Assembly: GCF_900215435.1 (NCBI RefSeq)
Contig: NZ_OCMY01000001.1
Coordinates: 2,542,001 to 2,606,000, forward strand
DNA length: 64,000 nucleotides
Direction: 5' to 3'
Source of the DNA: Candidatus Pantoea floridensis
GTDB taxonomy: Bacteria; Pseudomonadota; Gammaproteobacteria; Enterobacterales; Enterobacteriaceae
Both the position numbers and the translations under genes were made by a program. Below the pieces are notes generated by a model. It searched no databases. It was not told the DNA's origin and saw only the letters and a list, made by a program, of their open reading frames with translations. Shown here piece after piece: positions 9,074 through 16,730 of the stretch; the stretch's first letter is position 1; each line of letters opens with the position of its first letter.

Positions 9074-9766
9074 ATGAGCGTATTCAATGAAGTCACCGAA
9101 CTGACGCCTGTTGAAGAGACGCGCTACCTGCAACAGTGGCAGCCGCTGGTGAAGCGCGTAGTACGGCAGCTCTCCGCCCAAACGGATGCGGTGATGGATC
9201 GTGGCGATCTGGAACAAATTGCCTTTATGGGGCTGCTTGAATCGCTACGTCGTTATGGCCGTCCTGACGATCATTTTGCCGGTTACGCTTTACAGCGCGT
9301 GCGGGGAGCGGTGTTGGATCAGCTGCGTCTGCACGACTGGCGTCCGCGACGTCTGCGGCAGAAAACGCACAAAATCAATGATGCGGTGCGCGCACTCACG
9401 CGCCGTCTCGGCCACGAGCCGAACGAAGAAGAGTTGCGTCGACACCTCAAGCTCAGTCCGGAAGAGGTGCAGGAGTATTTGCTGCTGGAATCCGCTAGCG
9501 CGATGGAGAGTTTTGACGATCTGCTGGCAGGCGAAGCGCTGAGCAGTGTGTTAAGCGGACGTGCGCTGGAAGAGGAAATTAGCATTCAGCGCACGCTAAA
9601 GACCGCGCTGGCTTCGCTGAGCGAGCGCGAACAGTTGATTCTCAGCCTCTATTACCAGCACGAAATGAGCCTGAAAGAGATTGCGCTGGTGCTCGAGCTC
9701 ACCGAAGCGCGCGTCTGCCAGATTAATAAGAAGATTGGCGTGAAGATTAAACAATTCTTTGAGTAG
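9074..9766 (+). CDS. Orphan FliA-like (sigma-28 family) RNA polymerase sigma factor
   Basis: A 230-residue sigma-70 family protein of the FliA type. Region 2 spans about residues 20-90 (DLEQIAFMGLLESLRRYG, then YALQRVRGAVLDQLR followed by DWRPRRLRQ, the FliA-like DWVPRS position). Region 3 lies at about 95-135, and region 4 (about 175-225) contains LSEREQLILSLYYQHEMSLKEI and a helix-turn-helix (LTEARVCQINKKI). AGGAG precedes the ATG at 9074. No flagellar, anti-sigma or chemotaxis operon is adjacent, and the sequence is clearly diverged from housekeeping FliA, so this is probably a second, orphan sigma factor. A terminator follows at 9852. Its targets are unknown; it could drive a lateral flagellar system elsewhere or an unrelated regulon. 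Confidence 0.85.
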   Translation: MSVFNEVTELTPVEETRYLQQWQPLVKRVVRQLSAQTDAVMDRGDLEQIAFMGLLESLRRYGRPDDHFAGYALQRVRGAVLDQLRLHDWRPRRLRQKTHKINDAVRALTRRLGHEPNEEELRRHLKLSPEEVQEYLLLESASAMESFDDLLAGEALSSVLSGRALEEEISIQRTLKTALASLSEREQLILSLYYQHEMSLKEIALVLELTEARVCQINKKIGVKIKQFFE

Positions 9767-10295: not shown

Positions 10296-10904
10296 ATGAC
10301 TGCCAACAACTCCAGCCTGCTGTTACTGATGTCTTTCGCCGCCGGCACCTTTTCCGCTGGATCGTCCAGCAATCCGCAACATTTGATGCTATCGCTGCCG
10401 TCCGGTGGCGTGCCTAACAATCCGCTGCCGCTGATTATCTGGCCCGGTATCGTGCCGGATGAAGATGAAGCGGCAGACAGCGCGGCCTGGTTTGAAAAAA
10501 CCTTTACCCGCAACGGCTGGCCCGCTGCCTGGCGCTCGCCGATCTTCCCCTATACGCATTATCACCCCAACACGCATGAAGTCTTAGGCGTCGGCGCCGG
10601 CTGGGCGGAAGTGCTGTTTGGTGGGGACAGCGGTCGCATGGTGACGCTACGCGAAGGCGATGCGGTGCTGATCCCCGCCGGAGTGGGCCATAAGCAGGTA
10701 TTTGCCTCTGAGGATTTTTTCACCGTGGGCGCCTATCCTGAAGGGATGTCCCCGGAAACCGTGCGTGATGAGCCATCGCGTTTACGTGCGTCGAAGGAGA
10801 AGATCCAGCATGTTCCCTTGCCGCATCGCGATCCCTTCACCGGTGGCGATGGCGCGATGACGGAGATTTGGCTGCCAATCGCGCAGCAGCTGATGCACCA
10901 GTAA
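10296..10904 (+). CDS. Cupin-fold protein (YjlB-like)
   Basis: A 202-residue cytosolic protein with a cupin barrel: HYHPNTHEVLGVGAGWAEVLFG provides the first motif (two His and a Glu for metal), and GDAVLIPAGVGHKQV the second. The VPNNPLPLIIWPGIV start is typical of the YjlB family, whose substrate is unknown. Start 10296 is chosen for GGAGA just upstream; a longer frame from 10275 is less likely. Its stop codon lies inside the NtrC-type dyad that serves the next operon. It might be functionally linked to that operon but is probably transcribed separately. Confidence 0.82.
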   Translation: MTANNSSLLLLMSFAAGTFSAGSSSNPQHLMLSLPSGGVPNNPLPLIIWPGIVPDEDEAADSAAWFEKTFTRNGWPAAWRSPIFPYTHYHPNTHEVLGVGAGWAEVLFGGDSGRMVTLREGDAVLIPAGVGHKQVFASEDFFTVGAYPEGMSPETVRDEPSRLRASKEKIQHVPLPHRDPFTGGDGAMTEIWLPIAQQLMHQ

Positions 10905-10910
10905 GGTGCA
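10894..10910 (+). promoter_or_regulatory. NtrC-type enhancer site
   Basis: TGCACCAGTAAGGTGCA is a perfect 6-6 inverted repeat (TGCACC/GGTGCA, 5-base spacer) matching the NtrC consensus TGCACC-N5-GGTGCA. Its centre is about 86 bases before the predicted start of transcription of the sigma-54 promoter at 10962. It overlaps the TAA of the cupin gene. Confidence 0.75.
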
Positions 10911-10961
10911 AATCAGCCGTAATCGTCCGCGCGGCGCGTGTGCCATGCCGGGGCAAGCCTC

Positions 10962-10977
10962 TGGCACAGTTTGTGCA
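10962..10977 (+). promoter_or_regulatory. Sigma-54 promoter of the ATP-grasp/alpha-E/transglutaminase/Anbu operon
   Basis: TGGCACAGTTTGTGCA matches the sigma-54 consensus TGGCACGRNNNTTGCW at all positions that define it: GG (-24) and GC (-12) are exactly 12 bases apart and TGGCAC is complete. Transcription would begin near 10988, about 28 bases before the first start codon. Together with the upstream NtrC-type dyad this indicates induction under nitrogen limitation. Confidence 0.8.
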
Positions 10978-11015
10978 GGAGAGAGTGAGGTCCTCTGACA
11001 AGCGCCGGGTAAATC

Positions 11016-12455
11016 ATGAAAGAAAGCTACCAGATAGCATCGCACTTCTATGATGAGATGTTGCTAAGCGATGGCCAACACCGCGCTCATTATCAGCAAT
11101 ACTGGGAATGGTTACAGCAGGCGGACGTCGATGCAGTGGCGCGCAAGCGCGAAGAGGCGGAACTGCTGTTTCATCGTGTGGGCATTACATTCAACGTATA
11201 CGGTGACGATGGTGGAGCGGAGCGTTTAATTCCCTTCGACAGCGTGCCGCGCATCATACCTGCGCGAGAATGGGCAATGCTCGACCGCGGCATCCGCCAG
11301 CGCGTCCAGGCCCTTAACGCCTTCCTGCATGATATCTACCATCAGCAACACATCCTTAAAGCCGGAATTGTCCCCGCCGAACAGGTGCTGGTTAACGATC
11401 AGTATCAGCCCTGTATGCAGGGAGTCGATCTGCATCGCAACATATATGCGCACATTGTCGGCGTGGATATGGTGCGTAATAACGATGGCGACTATTACGT
11501 ACTGGAGGACAATCTGCGCACGCCGTCCGGCGTCTCGTACATGCTGGAAAACCGCAAAATGATGATGCGGCTCTATCCGGAGCTGTTCGCCGAACAGCAT
11601 ATCGCGCCGGTAGAGCGTTACCCCTCGCACCTGCTGCAAACCCTGCGCGAAAGCTCGCCGGTTAACGATCCGGTGGTAGTGGTGCTGACGCCAGGCCGCT
11701 TCAACAGCGCCTACTTTGAACACAGCTTCCTCGCGCAGCAGATGGGCGTGGAGCTGGTGGAAAGCGCCGACCTGTTCGTGAAGGACGGCGCGGTGATGAT
11801 GCGCACCACCGCCGGGCCGTGCAAGGTGGATGTGATCTACCGTCGCGTGGATGATGCCTTCCTCGATCCGCTGGCGTTTCGTCCTGATTCAATGCTCGGG
11901 GTGCCCGGTCTGCTGTCGGTGTATCGCTCCGGCAACGTGGTGCTGGCTAACGCCATCGGCACCGGCGTTGCCGATGATAAATCGATCTATCCTTATGTGC
12001 CGGAGATGATCCGCTTCTATCTCGATGAAGATCCGATCCTCAATAACGTGCCCACCTGGCAGTGTCGTAAACCGCAGGATCTCACCTATGTGCTTGCTAA
12101 CCTCAGCAAAATGGTGGTGAAAGAGGTACATGGCGCCGGCGGTTACGGCATGTTGATTGGTCCGGTGGCAAGCCAGCAAGAGCTGAGTGATTTCCGCGAT
12201 CGCCTCAAAGCGCGACCGGAAAACTACATCGCGCAGGACACGCTTTCGCTCTCCACTTGCCCAACCTTTATTGATAACGGCCTGGCGCCGCGCCATATCG
12301 ATCTGCGACCGTTTGCCTTGTGCGGTGCCGACATTCGGCTGGTGCCCGGGGGGTTAACTCGCGTAGCGTTAAATGAAGGATCGCTGGTGGTGAACTCGTC
12401 GCAGGGCGGTGGCACTAAAGATACCTGGGTTTTGGAGGATGACGCATCATGCTAA
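11016..12455 (+). CDS. Circularly permuted ATP-grasp protein (type 2, DUF404/DUF407)
   Basis: A 479-residue protein of the circularly permuted ATP-grasp family, recognisable from DRGIRQRVQALNAFLHDIYH, VGVDMVRNNDGDYYVLEDNLRTPSG, the VIYRRVDDAFLDPL segment and KEVHGAGGYGMLIGP near the C-terminal third. ATP-grasp enzymes join a carboxylate to an amine through an acyl-phosphate, so this one is thought to form an amide or peptide-like bond; the substrate is unknown. It is the first gene of a tight operon: its end overlaps the alpha-E gene by 7 bases. This set (ATP-grasp, alpha-E, transglutaminase, Anbu) is conserved in many proteobacteria. The ribosome binding site is weak. Confidence 0.92.
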   Translation: MKESYQIASHFYDEMLLSDGQHRAHYQQYWEWLQQADVDAVARKREEAELLFHRVGITFNVYGDDGGAERLIPFDSVPRIIPAREWAMLDRGIRQRVQALNAFLHDIYHQQHILKAGIVPAEQVLVNDQYQPCMQGVDLHRNIYAHIVGVDMVRNNDGDYYVLEDNLRTPSGVSYMLENRKMMMRLYPELFAEQHIAPVERYPSHLLQTLRESSPVNDPVVVVLTPGRFNSAYFEHSFLAQQMGVELVESADLFVKDGAVMMRTTAGPCKVDVIYRRVDDAFLDPLAFRPDSMLGVPGLLSVYRSGNVVLANAIGTGVADDKSIYPYVPEMIRFYLDEDPILNNVPTWQCRKPQDLTYVLANLSKMVVKEVHGAGGYGMLIGPVASQQELSDFRDRLKARPENYIAQDTLSLSTCPTFIDNGLAPRHIDLRPFALCGADIRLVPGGLTRVALNEGSLVVNSSQGGGTKDTWVLEDDASC

Positions 12456-13378
12456 GCCGCACCGCCAGTGGTCTTTATTGGATGGCGCGCTATCTGGAGC
12501 GCGCGGAACAACTCGCTCGTGTGTTAGACGTCACCAATCGCTTATCGTTGATGCCGGTGCGCGGTAGCCAGGGGGATGAGCTGCTGCTGCCGCTCAATCT
12601 TACCGGCACACGCGAGCTGTTTGAAACCCTCAACGGCCGTTTCACCATGGCGCAGCTGTTCAACTTCTTTGCCCTCGACGATCGCAATCCGAGCAGTATT
12701 TTCAGCTGCTGGCAGGAGGCGTGGAACAACGCGCATGCGGTGCGCGGCAGTTTGTCATCGGAAGTGTGGGAGAGCATTAATTCCACCTGGATTGAAATGC
12801 GCAATACGCGACGACGCGGTATTACCAGCGCCAATGCCGATACCTTTTTTGATTGGGTTAAAGAGCGCTCGCACCTGTTTCGCGGCGCGATGTTCGGCAC
12901 TTTGCTGCGCGGCGATGCCATGTGTTTTATCCGTATCGGCACCCTGATGGAGCGCAGCGATGGCACCGCGCGTTTGCTGAGTGTGAATCAGCAGCTGCTG
13001 GAGCAGCAGTCGGATTCGGTACGCGAATATTATTGTCTCGATACCCTGCTGCGTGCAGTCTCAGCGCGCGAAGCCTATAACGCTATCTTTAAGCAGCAGC
13101 TGTTTCCCGATCTGGTGAACGAGATGCTGATCCTGCGCAGCGAAAGTCCGCGATCGCTGCACTCCTGCATTGATGAGATCGCTACCCAGCTGGAGCAGAT
13201 CGGCAGCAGCGGCGAAGATCGTCCACGTTATCTGATCACCGTGCTACTGGCGGAGATGCGTTTCAGCACGTGGGAAAGCCTGACGCACGAAGGGTTAGAT
13301 CGCTGGCTCAATCACTTCCTCACGCGTCTTAACGCGCTGGCCGAGAGTATTAATCACACCTATCTGGAGGCGAAATGA
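12449..13378 (+). CDS. Alpha-E domain protein (DUF403)
   Basis: A 309-residue, mostly alpha-helical protein of the alpha-E family, with the characteristic N-terminus MLSRTASGLYWMARYLERAEQ and a C-terminal helical region (RWLNHFLTRLNALAESINH). Family members are always found with circularly permuted ATP-grasp and transglutaminase genes and are thought to be a partner or scaffold in the same peptide modification. GGAGG lies 10 bases before the ATG, inside the end of the ATP-grasp gene. It overlaps the next gene by ATGA, so translation is coupled through the operon. Confidence 0.92.
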   Translation: MLSRTASGLYWMARYLERAEQLARVLDVTNRLSLMPVRGSQGDELLLPLNLTGTRELFETLNGRFTMAQLFNFFALDDRNPSSIFSCWQEAWNNAHAVRGSLSSEVWESINSTWIEMRNTRRRGITSANADTFFDWVKERSHLFRGAMFGTLLRGDAMCFIRIGTLMERSDGTARLLSVNQQLLEQQSDSVREYYCLDTLLRAVSAREAYNAIFKQQLFPDLVNEMLILRSESPRSLHSCIDEIATQLEQIGSSGEDRPRYLITVLLAEMRFSTWESLTHEGLDRWLNHFLTRLNALAESINHTYLEAK

Positions 13379-14172
13379 GACTGAACATTGAGCATAAAAC
13401 CAGCTACGCCTACGAGCAGCAGGTAAAACTCAGCACCCAGTATCTGCGCCTGACGCCGCAAAACTCGGTGCATCAGCAGATTATCTCGTGGGATTTGGAG
13501 CTGCCGTGTGCCGCCACGCGTACAGAAGATGCCTACGGCAATGTGATGCATGTGCTGACGCTGGATACGCCGCATCAGCAATTGGCTATCGCAGCGCGCG
13601 GGGTGGTGGAGATCCTCGATGACGGCGAGTGGGCACCCGATCCGGAATGCGCGCTATCGCCGCTGGTGTTTCTGCGCTCAACGCCGTTAACCCAGCCCAA
13701 CGGCGAGATTCGCGATTTTGCTCAGCGCTACTGGCGGCCAGAGAAGCCGCTGGCCAGCCTGGAAAAGCTCATGGACGAACTGCTGCTGAAAATGCCGTAT
13801 CGTCCTGGCAGCACTCAGGTAACAGATGCCGCAGCGAAAGTATTTGCTGCCGGCAGCGGTGTTTGCCAGGATCACAGCCACGTTTTTCTCGCCTGCTGTC
13901 GCAGCCTTGGCATTCCGGCGCGCTATGTCAGCGGCTATCTCTATACTGAAAACGTTGAGCACGTCGCCACTCATGCCTGGGTTGAAGCCTGGCTGGATGG
14001 CAGTTGGCACAGCTTTGATATCACCAATAATACCCGCAGTACGCGTCAGCATTTGCGGCTGGCGGTTGGCGTGGATTATCTCGATGCATGTCCGGTGCGC
14101 GGTATGCGGCTGGGCGGCGGCGGTGAAGATATGCTGGCGGTGGCTGCGGTGCTGCAGGTGCATGCGCAGTAG
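13375..14172 (+). CDS. Transglutaminase-like cysteine protease family protein
   Basis: A 265-residue protein with an N-terminal beta-rich domain (about 1-90, the bacterial transglutaminase-like N-terminal region) and a transglutaminase core. The catalytic triad is visible: Cys164 in GSGVCQDHSH, His200 in THAWVEAW and Asp215 in HSFDITNN. Such enzymes cleave or transfer amide bonds. Its stop lies 20 bases before the Anbu start. In the operon it could hydrolyse or reshuffle the product made by the ATP-grasp enzyme; this is inference from context. Confidence 0.93.
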   Translation: MRLNIEHKTSYAYEQQVKLSTQYLRLTPQNSVHQQIISWDLELPCAATRTEDAYGNVMHVLTLDTPHQQLAIAARGVVEILDDGEWAPDPECALSPLVFLRSTPLTQPNGEIRDFAQRYWRPEKPLASLEKLMDELLLKMPYRPGSTQVTDAAAKVFAAGSGVCQDHSHVFLACCRSLGIPARYVSGYLYTENVEHVATHAWVEAWLDGSWHSFDITNNTRSTRQHLRLAVGVDYLDACPVRGMRLGGGGEDMLAVAAVLQVHAQ

Positions 14173-14192
14173 CAATCTGAATAGGCACGACT

Positions 14193-14897
14193 ATGACTTA
14201 TTGTGTGGCAATGCGTTTATCGTCAGGGATGATTTTTGTCTCCGATTCGCGCACCAATGCGGGCGTTGATCATATCTCCTCGTTCCGTAAACTGCATGTT
14301 TTTCAGGTGGATGATGAACGCACGCTGGTGCTGCAAAGCGCAGGCAATCTGGCCACCACGCAGAGCGTACTCAGCCTGCTGCGACGTAACAACGGCGATA
14401 GCGAACAGCCCAATTTGCTCAATGGGCGATCGCTGTATGACATTGCGCTGATGGTGGGGGAAACGCTGCGGGAGGTGATCAAACGCGATGGCGAAGAGTT
14501 TGGCGGCACGCTGCTGTTGGGCGGCCAGATTCGTGGCGAGGAGCCGCGTCTGTTCCAGATCTATCCGCAGGGTAATTTCATTGAGGCCAGCGTCGACACG
14601 CCTTATTTCCAGATTGGCGAGAGCAAATATGGCAAACCGATTATCGATCGCGTGCTGCGTTATGAAACGCCGCTTAGCCAGGCCATGCAGTGTGCGCTGA
14701 TCTCAATGGATTCGACGCTCGCCAGTAATATTTCCGTGGGCCTGCCGCTGGATGTGATGGTGTATCACACCGACAGTTTCAGCGATAACCAGCAGTATCA
14801 CATCACCGAGCAACACCCCTATTTTTCACAGATTCGTCAGCTGTGGAGCAAAGGCTTATTGAGCGTGTTTTCGCAGTTGCCCCCCCTGCAGCTGTAG
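14193..14897 (+). CDS. Anbu, proteasome-type Ntn-hydrolase family protein
   Basis: A 234-residue member of the Anbu family, relatives of the proteasome beta subunit and HslV. It begins M-T-Y-C-V, so Thr2 would be the N-terminal nucleophile after removal of Met, and AGNLATTQSVLSLL and GGTLLLGGQIRG match the family. Anbu subunits build open-ring or helical assemblies; a peptidase role has been hard to prove. It is the last gene of the four-gene operon. The sigma-54 promoter and NtrC-type site upstream of the operon predict expression when nitrogen is limiting. Confidence 0.93.
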   Translation: MTYCVAMRLSSGMIFVSDSRTNAGVDHISSFRKLHVFQVDDERTLVLQSAGNLATTQSVLSLLRRNNGDSEQPNLLNGRSLYDIALMVGETLREVIKRDGEEFGGTLLLGGQIRGEEPRLFQIYPQGNFIEASVDTPYFQIGESKYGKPIIDRVLRYETPLSQAMQCALISMDSTLASNISVGLPLDVMVYHTDSFSDNQQYHITEQHPYFSQIRQLWSKGLLSVFSQLPPLQL

Positions 14898-15029
14898 CCT
14901 GAATGGCAGACGCCTCGCCGCGTTTGCCCCTTCTGATTTTTTCCTCGGTTAGTGCATCCCGGTCATAAATCTGAAAACAAGCCGTTTTAACGTCGAAGCG
15001 ATTAATCGCTGCGCATAAAAAGGTGAATA

Positions 15030-16730
15030 ATGTTTTCAGTTGATCAGCTTCTCGATACGTACTGGCCCGGTCACCAACCCGCGAACTGGCAAAAAAACGC
15101 GCTGAAATGGGCGGTTCGCGAACATGAATTCCAGGCATTTGCTGCCCGCTATCGCCACCTCAAAGGCGTGGATATGGTGGAGCAAGTGCTGGAGCACCTG
15201 GATGTGCGTTGTGAACTGAGCGAGCGCGATCTGGAACAAATCCCCACGCGTGGCCCGGTGGTGATTGTCGCTAATCATCCGCTGGGCGCCCTGGATGGAT
15301 TAGCCCTGCTGGCGGCCGTTTCGCAGGTGCGGCGCGATGTGAAGATCGTGGCCAACCGCATGTTGATGATGCTGGAACCGATCAACAACATGATGCTGCC
15401 GGTGGATAACATGGGCAACCGCACTAGCCGCGAACAGTTCACGCGCATGCAGCAGCATCTTGATAATCAGGGTGTACTGATCATCTTCCCGGCGGGTGAA
15501 GTCTCGCGGCTTACCAGTCGAGGCGTGCGCGATCGTCACTGGCATCACAGCTTTCTGCGTCTCGCCGCGCGCGCGCGCGCGCCTATCGTACCGGTGCATG
15601 TGGTGGGGCGTAACAGCCTGGCATTTTACGCAGCAGCGAAAATTGCCGCACCGCTGGCGTTGCTGATGCTGGTACGTGAGATGTTTCGTCAGCGCGGCGC
15701 GCGCATCAAGCTGCATATCGGCGAGCAGATCCCCTTTGCGCATTGGCATGATGGCCATACGCCCGGCAAAGAGCTGGCGAAGCGGCTGCGTAAGCATCTG
15801 TATCGCATCGGGCAGGGGCGACGCGGCCTGTTCCAGACCGCAGCGGCGATTGCCCGCCCGGAAGATCGTGCCGAGCTGAAAAAAGCGCTGCTGGAGGGCG
15901 AACGACTCGGCACGCTGCCGGATGGCAAACAGATCTACCTGTGGCGACGTAATGGCGCGAGTTGGGTACCGCTGCTGCGCGAGCTGGGCCGTTTACGGGA
16001 AGTGGCGTTCCGCGCGGTCGGCGAGGGCAGCGGGCGCCGTCGCGATCTCGACAAATACGATGATGATTATTATCACCTGATTTTGTGGGATGACGATGAA
16101 CTGGAAATTGTCGGTGCCTATCGCTTTATTCCGGGCGCCGAGCAGCTGGCGCGTCGCGGACTGGAGGGCATTTACAGCGACAGCCTGTTCCACTACGACG
16201 AGCGTATGCTGCCGATCATCCATCAAGGTCTCGAGCTGGGCCGCAGTTTTATTCAACCCGCTTACTGGGGGAAACGCGGCCTTGATTATCTGTGGATGGG
16301 GATTGGCGCCTATATCGCCAAATATCCCGAAACCCGCTATCTGTTCGGCCCGGTATCGATCTCCGGCGGGATGCCGCTGGCGGCGCGCGATTTGCTGGTG
16401 GCGTTCTATCGTCTCTATTTCCCTACCGAACTGCCGCTGGCAACCTCGCGTCGCCCCTATCCAGCATCGCTGCCGGAAGTGCTGGCGCAGTTCACCGGCG
16501 ATAATTACAGCGAAGATTTGCGACGCCTTAAACACCTGCTGGCCAACCTCGGCACCGCTATTCCCACGCTGTACAAACAGTATTCGGAGGTATGCGAACC
16601 GGGCGGCGTGCAGTTTATCGATTTCGGCAGCGACCCCGATTTTAACCACTGTATTGATGGGTTAGTGCTGGTGGATCTCACCCGGGTGAAGCCCGCGCGC
16701 TATGAGCGTTATATCGGGATGCATCTGTGA
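15030..16730 (+). CDS. olsF: Bifunctional ornithine lipid synthase OlsF-like acyltransferase
   Basis: A 566-residue two-domain protein. The N-terminal half (about 60-270) is a PlsC-like acyltransferase with motif NHPLGALDG (His83 and Asp89, spacing HX5D rather than the common HX4D) and FPAGEVSR as the glycerolipid-binding motif. The C-terminal half (about 290-560) is a GNAT-like OlsB domain (LREVAFRAVGEGSGRR, LILWDDDELEIVGAYR, ELGRSFI, YLWMGIGAYI, GPVSISG). This order is that of OlsF, which N-acylates ornithine and then O-acylates the product to give phosphorus-free ornithine lipids. AAGGTG precedes the ATG. It is monocistronic between the Anbu operon and a repeat pair. Confidence 0.82.
   Translation: MFSVDQLLDTYWPGHQPANWQKNALKWAVREHEFQAFAARYRHLKGVDMVEQVLEHLDVRCELSERDLEQIPTRGPVVIVANHPLGALDGLALLAAVSQVRRDVKIVANRMLMMLEPINNMMLPVDNMGNRTSREQFTRMQQHLDNQGVLIIFPAGEVSRLTSRGVRDRHWHHSFLRLAARARAPIVPVHVVGRNSLAFYAAAKIAAPLALLMLVREMFRQRGARIKLHIGEQIPFAHWHDGHTPGKELAKRLRKHLYRIGQGRRGLFQTAAAIARPEDRAELKKALLEGERLGTLPDGKQIYLWRRNGASWVPLLRELGRLREVAFRAVGEGSGRRRDLDKYDDDYYHLILWDDDELEIVGAYRFIPGAEQLARRGLEGIYSDSLFHYDERMLPIIHQGLELGRSFIQPAYWGKRGLDYLWMGIGAYIAKYPETRYLFGPVSISGGMPLAARDLLVAFYRLYFPTELPLATSRRPYPASLPEVLAQFTGDNYSEDLRRLKHLLANLGTAIPTLYKQYSEVCEPGGVQFIDFGSDPDFNHCIDGLVLVDLTRVKPARYERYIGMHL

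What the first reader, a model, noticed from the sequence alone, without database searches (positions are those of the whole stretch)
10894..14897. Anbu/ATP-grasp/alpha-E/transglutaminase operon apparently under NtrC and sigma-54
The sequence shows TGGCACAGTTTGTGCA with the exact -24 GG / -12 GC spacing 28-54 bases before the operon, and a perfect 17-base dyad TGCACCAGTAAGGTGCA about 86 bases upstream of the predicted start. Known families: NtrC sites have this dyad, and Anbu is a proteasome relative of unsettled function that travels with these three genes. Inference: the cell makes and breaks an amide-linked product when nitrogen is scarce, for example a storage or tagging peptide, with ATP-grasp and alpha-E as maker and transglutaminase and Anbu as breakers. 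This is the best candidate in the window for a poorly described system with a testable trigger.
Basis: partly seen in the sequence, partly recalled or inferred. Interest (0 to 1): 0.78.

Follow-up and report, generated by a model that had tools for sequence, protein, structure and literature searches.

The report
Nitrogen-starvation switch of Anbu proteasome-relative operon
A four-gene operon that includes Anbu, a bacterial relative of the proteasome with no known job, carries a nitrogen-starvation control region that many related bacteria have kept, which points to a role when nitrogen runs out.

Summary
A perfect NtrC-type dyad (10894-10910) and a GG-N10-GC sigma-54 element (10962-10977) precede an intact operon: ATP-grasp, alpha-E, transglutaminase-like, Anbu. 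Neither site is convincing alone; conservation is. The sigma-54 element precedes 46 of 53 testable named contiguous operons, against 1 of 56 at an internal control; 50 of 57 upstream regions have it, shuffles average 1.5. Dyads: 29 of 57, shuffles 2.5. Only the exact spacings are enriched. In a Polynucleobacter-group genus, 33 of 35 operons from genomes without an rpoN hit keep a dyad and 0 of 35 have a sigma-54 site; the three NtrC proteins examined there lack intact GAFTGA. Limits: the named loci are this operon's closest relatives; in an even class sample 1 of 4 such operons has the site. Nitrogen induction of the Pseudomonas putida counterpart is already in print; one study finds it persisting in an rpoN mutant, with Anbu itself nearly unchanged in wild type. 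New here: the enterobacterial case, the breadth and limits of conservation, and the dyad's survival without rpoN. The make-and-break chemistry remains untested.

The parts
10894..10910 (.). NtrC-type enhancer dyad TGCACC-N5-GGTGCA, perfect; overlaps the end and stop codon of the upstream cupin gene
   Evidence: conserved in relatives
10939..10955 (.). doubtful second NtrC-like site, 3 mismatches
   Evidence: hit at -77 in the window; absent in most relatives listed
10962..10977 (+). sigma-54 (-24/-12) promoter TGGCACAGTTTGTGCA
   Evidence: upstream of ATP-grasp in relatives
10990..11015 (+). 5' leader just before the start codon, well conserved in the genus; role unknown
   Evidence: alignment of 15 operons
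11016..12455 (+). circularly permuted ATP-grasp protein (putative amide ligase)
   Evidence: CP_ATPgrasp_2 555 bits; one search matches 3n6x
12449..13378 (+). alpha-E protein, all-helical in the model
   Evidence: Alpha-E 264 bits; model mean pLDDT 89.4
13375..14172 (+). transglutaminase-like cysteine hydrolase; Cys164, His200 and Asp215 conserved
   Evidence: 72/72, 71/72, 71/72
14193..14897 (+). Anbu, proteasome-related Ntn-hydrolase; Thr2, Asp18, Lys33 conserved
14905..14928 (+). weak terminator-like hairpin after Anbu (9 pairs, poor T-run)
   Evidence: number found in the stretch (5) is close to the shuffle mean (4.0)

Best explanation
The four genes form one operon of the nitrogen-limitation (Ntr) regulon. 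When nitrogen is short, phosphorylated NtrC (general mechanism recalled) binds the dyad at 10894-10910 and activates sigma-54 polymerase at 10962-10977, so that the four proteins are made together (regulation: inferred from conserved sequence, about 0.9 likely). The most likely job is nitrogen salvage (inference, about 0.4): the ATP-grasp/alpha-E pair spends ATP to form an amide bond on a peptide, protein or small molecule, and the transglutaminase-fold hydrolase and Anbu hydrolyse amide bonds of that product or of tagged proteins, returning amino-nitrogen. This would be a counterpart of starvation-time proteasome recycling in other bacteria (recalled), not a nitrogen store.
For: Both sites are present with exact spacing. 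NtrC and RpoN are encoded and this NtrC has GAFTGA. Of 15 examined of 16 genomic dyads with at most 1 mismatch, 3 have a sigma-54 match (at most 1 mismatch) 10-320 bases downstream: this operon, glnA and one locus on contig 2; about 0.15 expected by hand. sigma-54 site: 26 of 28 family-set and 46 of 53 testable named contiguous operons, against 0 of 28 and 1 of 56 upstream of Anbu inside the same operons. Shuffles: 50 of 57 against a mean of 1.54 (max 6 of 200 shuffles); dyad 29 of 57 against 2.54 (max 8). Changing the dyad spacer from 5 drops hits from 29 to 6 or fewer; changing the sigma-54 spacer drops them from 50 to 4 or fewer. In the Polynucleobacter-group genus 33 of 35 operons from genomes without an rpoN hit keep a dyad and 0 of 35 have a sigma-54 site; in G694 the only two perfect dyads lie before amt and this operon. 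Published: a PP_2688 upstream stretch gave 3.7-fold induction on nitrogen depletion, that of PP_2685 (Anbu) did not respond (PMC8050072); PP_2686, PP_2687 and PP_2688 rose 12.6-, 11.0- and 14.7-fold in wild type (PMC7801951). Catalytic residues are conserved; five natural ATP-grasp/alpha-E fusions tie those two together.
Against: No expression data for this organism. In PMC7801951 Table 2 (columns wt, relA/spoT, rpoN) PP_2686-2688 were still induced 14-, 16- and 20-fold in the P. putida rpoN mutant (urtA too), and PP_2685 (Anbu) only 1.12-fold in wild type; both argue against strict RpoN dependence and co-induction of all four genes there. PMC5666114 describes Anbu as constitutive in moderate amounts and unchanged in various conditions, except nitrogen limitation in P. 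putida. In PMC8050072 the glnK promoter was also unresponsive, so the negative result for the PP_2685 stretch is weak support. Only one strong dyad here; paired NtrC sites are usual (recalled). All 8 Acinetobacter operons have the sigma-54 site but 0 of 8 a dyad. In the even class-wide sample 1 of 4 type-I operons has the site. No peptidase or amidase activity of Y. bercovieri Anbu and no specific interaction among its operon proteins was found in PMC6376114.
Confidence: 0.78

Rival explanations
1. The operon is expressed constitutively or by another regulator, and the dyad and -24/-12 match are chance or serve the upstream cupin gene (for example as a hairpin at its end).
For: The dyad overlaps the cupin stop codon; one perfect dyad per genome is near chance; sigma-54 near-matches are frequent; induction persists in a P. 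putida rpoN mutant.
Against: Both sites recur upstream of ATP-grasp in relatives without that cupin; exact spacings and position are enriched far above shuffles and spacer controls; no T-run follows the dyad.
Confidence: 0.06
2. A sigma-54 promoter, but driven mainly by another enhancer-binding protein, with NtrC secondary.
For: Acinetobacter operons have the promoter but 0 of 8 a dyad; the f25 (Aeromonas-like) relatives carry only 2- or 3-mismatch NtrC dyads, among them another palindrome; several other NtrC-family proteins are encoded.
Against: The window dyad is perfect; in genomes without an rpoN hit the dyad remains without the promoter.
Confidence: 0.1
3. The operon makes an amide-linked nitrogen store or protective peptide under nitrogen shortage.
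For: The ATP-grasp protein of the Yersinia operon releases phosphate from ATP (PMC6376114); the domains fit a peptide ligase; fusions couple ligase and alpha-E.
Against: Storing nitrogen when it is scarce is unlikely (inference); two of four genes have hydrolase folds.
Confidence: 0.15
4. The operon acts in uptake or use of a particular nitrogen source such as urea or peptides, not in protein turnover.
For: The domains cluster with urea-metabolism domains in marine metagenomes (PMC3597751); PP_2686-2688 rise together with urt genes in P. putida (PMC7801951).
Against: None of the four proteins hits a transporter family. Among flanking genes an ABC-transporter ATPase family recurs in only 5 of 80 named loci; urease was not searched for.
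Confidence: 0.2

Closest known systems
Pseudomonas putida PP_2685-PP_2688 (Anbu operon)
   Same: Same four gene kinds; nitrogen-limitation induction and an attribution to NtrB/NtrC are in print (PMC7801951, PMC8050072, PMC3325844; passages).
   Different: Enterobacterium here; the dyad is perfect here, against 2 mismatches (L159, L160, L163) or no match within 2 mismatches (L162, L164, L173) in the named Pseudomonas loci with ATP-grasp (P. putida itself is not among them).
Yersinia bercovieri Anbu operon
   Same: Same four genes; crystal structure of Anbu and ATP turnover by the ATP-grasp protein (PMC6376114, passages).
   Different: NtrC is not mentioned in that paper's main text (0 occurrences).
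Burkholderia cenocepacia I35_5080-83
   Same: DUF404/DUF407 (ATP-grasp), DUF403 (alpha-E) and transglutaminase-like genes, lowered 6- to 9-fold in the ntrC mutant and named as common sigma-54 and NtrC targets (PMC5491218, passages).
   Different: No Anbu is listed in that cluster.
Rhodobacter capsulatus and Caulobacter NtrC
   Same: NtrC without GAFTGA acting without sigma-54 (PMC10274813, passages), as inferred here for the Polynucleobacter group.
   Different: There a deletion of the loop in alpha-proteobacteria; here substitutions in beta-proteobacteria.

Membership tests
Anbu operon | ATP-grasp, alpha-E, transglutaminase-like and Anbu genes in this order on one strand | tested here: met
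Anbu operon | Anbu Thr1, Asp17, Lys32(33) (numbered without Met) | tested here: met
   T2, D18, K33 invariant in 11 of 11 sequences; residue list from PMC6376114
sigma-54 promoter | GG-N10-GC element with TGGCAC/TTGC surroundings upstream of the first gene | tested here: met
   conserved
sigma-54 promoter | rpoN in the genome | tested here: met
sigma-54 promoter | transcription depends on RpoN | not testable with these tools
   No expression data for this organism; published P. putida data show induction persisting in an rpoN mutant
NtrC regulon | NtrC-type dyad upstream of the promoter | tested here: met
NtrC regulon | NtrC with GAFTGA encoded | tested here: met
NtrC regulon | paired NtrC sites | tested here: inconclusive
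   One strong site; a second only at 3 mismatches
NtrC regulon | NtrC binding and NtrC-dependent expression | not testable with these tools
   Needs footprinting and mutants
HslUV/20S-type ATP-dependent protease | AAA+ unfoldase encoded in the same operon | tested here: not met
   The operon has four genes and no AAA+ family hit among them at E 0.001

The most novel reading that the evidence does not exclude
The Anbu operon is a core member of the NtrC regulon whose tie to NtrC outlives sigma-54: in a beta-proteobacterial genus where most sampled genomes show no rpoN and the NtrC proteins examined have lost the sigma-54 loop motif, NtrC was rewired to the ordinary polymerase and still holds this operon together with amt and glnA. 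Anbu with its ligase and hydrolase would then be a dedicated nitrogen-starvation protein- or peptide-recycling machine of proteobacteria, analogous to the Pup-proteasome of actinobacteria.
Probability: 0.3. Interest if true: 0.8.

Novelty: new member of a known kind. Interest (0 to 1): 0.52.

Why it matters
Anbu structures exist, but its substrate and purpose are unsettled. A conserved nitrogen-starvation control region says when to look for substrates and products, and in which mutants. The genomes without an rpoN hit add support of another kind, because they keep the NtrC site while the promoter that it served is gone.

Tried and rejected
A class-wide claim was rejected. In the even sample 87 of 369 genomes have Anbu, the window's own among them; 80 were fetched: 47 had no ATP-grasp in the fetched stretch (some cut by contig ends), 17 were divergent, 11 contiguous, 5 other. 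The sigma-54 site was found in 1 of 4 type-I and 5 of 29 type-II loci. The named set is the best 80 of at least 591 relatives, so it is biased towards this Anbu.

Rows dropped before counts: named set, 21 loci without ATP-grasp and 2 with too little upstream sequence, one more; family set, 10 of 38 loci (9 without Anbu in the fetched stretch, 1 divergent); genus set, 2 of 48 genomes with split ATP-grasp hits (G718, G726).

Literature: the two Hervas papers are not held and Iyer 2009 was not looked up; all three are known through other papers. Searches for this link in print; two searches listed 20 of 396 and 20 of 251 papers.
Full report
What is there. The window lies on the 4.41-Mb contig of a 5.45-Mb, five-contig genome. 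It is Pantoea-like: a same-genus genome (G015) has a 552,300-base contig, the length of the contig named Pantoea sp. GD03673, and the best named Anbu match is Pantoea dispersa, 94%. The four genes at 11016-14897 are intact, overlapping or 20 bases apart, and match their families. By sequence, ATP-grasp matches the solved 3n6x, Anbu five distinct solved sequences, the transglutaminase-like protein 3isr (53 bits) and 6g49 (23 bits); alpha-E has no solved relative.

The control region. The dyad (10894-10910) and the -24/-12 element (10962-10977) are exact. In the genome the perfect dyad occurs once; 16 places have at most 1 mismatch. Of these, 15 had a locus and were examined. Three have a sigma-54 match with at most 1 mismatch 10-320 bases downstream: this operon (68 bases), glnA (124 bases; recognised by me from its translation) and a contig-2 locus with promoters on both sides (69 and 111 bases). 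By hand calculation about 0.15 would be expected. The genome has NtrC over its curated cut-off and RpoN; its NtrC has GAFTGA.

Conservation nearby. In 15 cupin-bearing operons of the genus (window plus L066-L079) all have a sigma-54 site with at most 2 mismatches and a dyad with at most 1. Seven operons without that cupin all have the promoter, and 6 of 7 a dyad with at most 2 mismatches. So the dyad does not depend on the cupin gene whose stop codon it overlaps here.

Conservation further away. Of the 80 best named Anbu loci, 21 had no ATP-grasp hit in the fetched stretch and 2 too little upstream sequence, leaving 57. Of these, 50 have the sigma-54 site within 260 bases (200 shuffles: mean 1.54, max 6) and 29 a dyad with at most 2 mismatches (mean 2.54, max 8). 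Counted strictly by architecture, 46 of 53 testable contiguous operons have it, plus 3 of 3 divergent loci; upstream of Anbu inside the contiguous operons it is 1 of 56. Family set: 26 of 28, inside control 0 of 28; the two misses are L084 and L095. Genera with the site include Pantoea, Erwinia, Kosakonia, Pluralibacter, Aeromonas, Pseudomonas, Marinobacter, Alcanivorax, Acinetobacter, Roseateles and Dechloromonas. Hits fall from 29 to at most 6 when the dyad spacer is changed, and from 50 to at most 4 when the sigma-54 spacer is changed. No flanking gene family recurs in more than 10 of 80 loci, so the promoter stays with the operon while neighbours mostly change.

Exceptions and limits. The seven contiguous named operons without the site are L156, L164, L192, L194, L195, L204 and L211. 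L156 has a 1-mismatch site at -309, outside the counted stretch, with a 1-mismatch dyad before it. L195, L204 and L211 come from genomes with no rpoN hit. L164, L192 and L194 have rpoN and remain unexplained. All 8 Acinetobacter operons have the promoter but none a dyad. In the even class sample the site is in 1 of 4 type-I and 5 of 29 type-II loci. The link belongs to the close type-I four-gene operons, not to Anbu in general. A loose end: 7 of 17 divergent type-II loci carry a dyad with at most 2 mismatches (200 shuffles: mean 0.6, max 3), only one of them with a sigma-54 site.

Genomes without an rpoN hit. TIGR02395 hits 7 of 10 genomes tested; the three misses carry Polynucleobacter-group operons (an eleventh, L138, was not held). 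All 10 have NtrC over cut-off. In the three misses GAFTGA reads GAFANA, GAFPGA and GAFQGA; five controls have GAFTGA. In a genus sample of 61 genomes, 22 have rpoN and 39 no hit; 48 of 61 have the ATP-grasp gene. I examined 47 upstream regions: 46 from genomes of that sample and L211, whose genome (G694) was tested. Of 35 from genomes without an rpoN hit, 33 keep a dyad with at most 2 mismatches and 0 have a sigma-54 site; of 12 with rpoN, 8 keep a dyad and 1 (G733) has a perfect sigma-54 match. So in this genus rpoN presence does not by itself bring the promoter back. Genome completeness is not shown for these, so single rpoN absences may be gaps, and close relatives weigh heavily. In G694 the two perfect dyads lie before amt and this operon; in G693 the three perfect ones include both, the third lying in a small reading frame; glnA has two 1-mismatch dyads in each (amt scored below the family's own cut-off, 302-311 against 343). 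Against this, in G692 the one perfect dyad lies inside a gene, the amt dyad has 1 mismatch and the operon's dyad 2. On balance this supports the dyad as the NtrC box and the operon as a lasting member of the regulon.

What is already in print. Passages only were read. PMC5666114 and PMC6376114 report the operon, the tagging or peptide-synthesis proposals, and induction under nitrogen limitation, citing Hervas et al.; PMC5666114 also calls expression otherwise constitutive and unchanged. PMC7801951 lists PP_2686, PP_2687 and PP_2688 up 12.6-, 11.0- and 14.7-fold in wild type with ntrB/ntrC as putative regulator, but also 14.2-, 16.0- and 19.6-fold in the rpoN mutant, and PP_2685 only 1.12-, 4.81- and 1.45-fold in wt, relA/spoT and rpoN. 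PMC3325844 lists PP2685 up 11.1-fold under nitrogen limitation and PMC8050072 gives it a log2 change of 4.44 on nitrate against ammonium, so reports on Anbu itself differ. PMC8050072 used the PP_2688 upstream stretch as a nitrogen-limitation promoter, 3.7-fold; those of PP_2685 and glnK did not respond. PMC12316311 places COG3484 in the predicted sigma-54 regulon of alpha, beta and gamma classes. PMC5491218 finds an ATP-grasp, alpha-E and transglutaminase cluster under NtrC and sigma-54 in B. cenocepacia. The searches named in Tried and rejected returned no paper that I recognised as describing the enterobacterial promoter or the dyad's survival without rpoN; most subscription papers are not held and two listings were cut.

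Function. Shown: families, conserved catalytic residues and natural ATP-grasp/alpha-E fusions (5 in my loci). Inferred: that ligase and hydrolases act on one product, and that the outcome is nitrogen salvage. Against a simple protease: no activity was seen for Y. bercovieri Anbu and no AAA+ partner is encoded in the operon. Verdict: regulation about 0.9, salvage about 0.4.

Noticed in passing
L195, L204, L211 and L370-L414: In a Polynucleobacter-group genus rpoN is patchy (22 of 61 genomes) and the NtrC proteins of three genomes without it have a changed GAFTGA, yet dyads remain before amt, glnA (two genomes looked at) and the Anbu operon.
   Followed up: partly
L251, L261, L265, L272, L274, L295, L327: 7 of 17 divergent type-II Anbu loci of the class sample carry an NtrC-like dyad (shuffles 0.6), all but one without a sigma-54 site; a second hint of NtrC control without sigma-54.
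   Followed up: partly
L013 (contig 2, 327115): One 1-mismatch NtrC dyad flanked by two sigma-54 matches facing outward, next to an SsuA-like substrate-binding gene (weak hit, below cut-off).
   Followed up: partly
L041-L045, about -256 to -274: f25 (Aeromonas-like) operons carry a second palindrome, TGCCCC-N5-GGGGCA in most of the five, with varying spacer; function unknown.
   Followed up: no
window 15030-16730: Bifunctional ornithine lipid synthase OlsF downstream (826 bits, cut-off 620); the hairpin between it and Anbu is weak.
   Followed up: no
window 9074-9766: FliA/WhiG-family sigma factor, over the PRK12427 equivalog cut-off.
   Followed up: no
window 10990-11015: Leader just before the ATP-grasp start is highly conserved in the genus; no Rfam family matches there.
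   Followed up: partly
class sample L248-L327: 47 of 80 Anbu genes have no ATP-grasp hit in the fetched stretch, so Anbu often lies apart from these partners, though some stretches are cut by contig ends.
   Followed up: no
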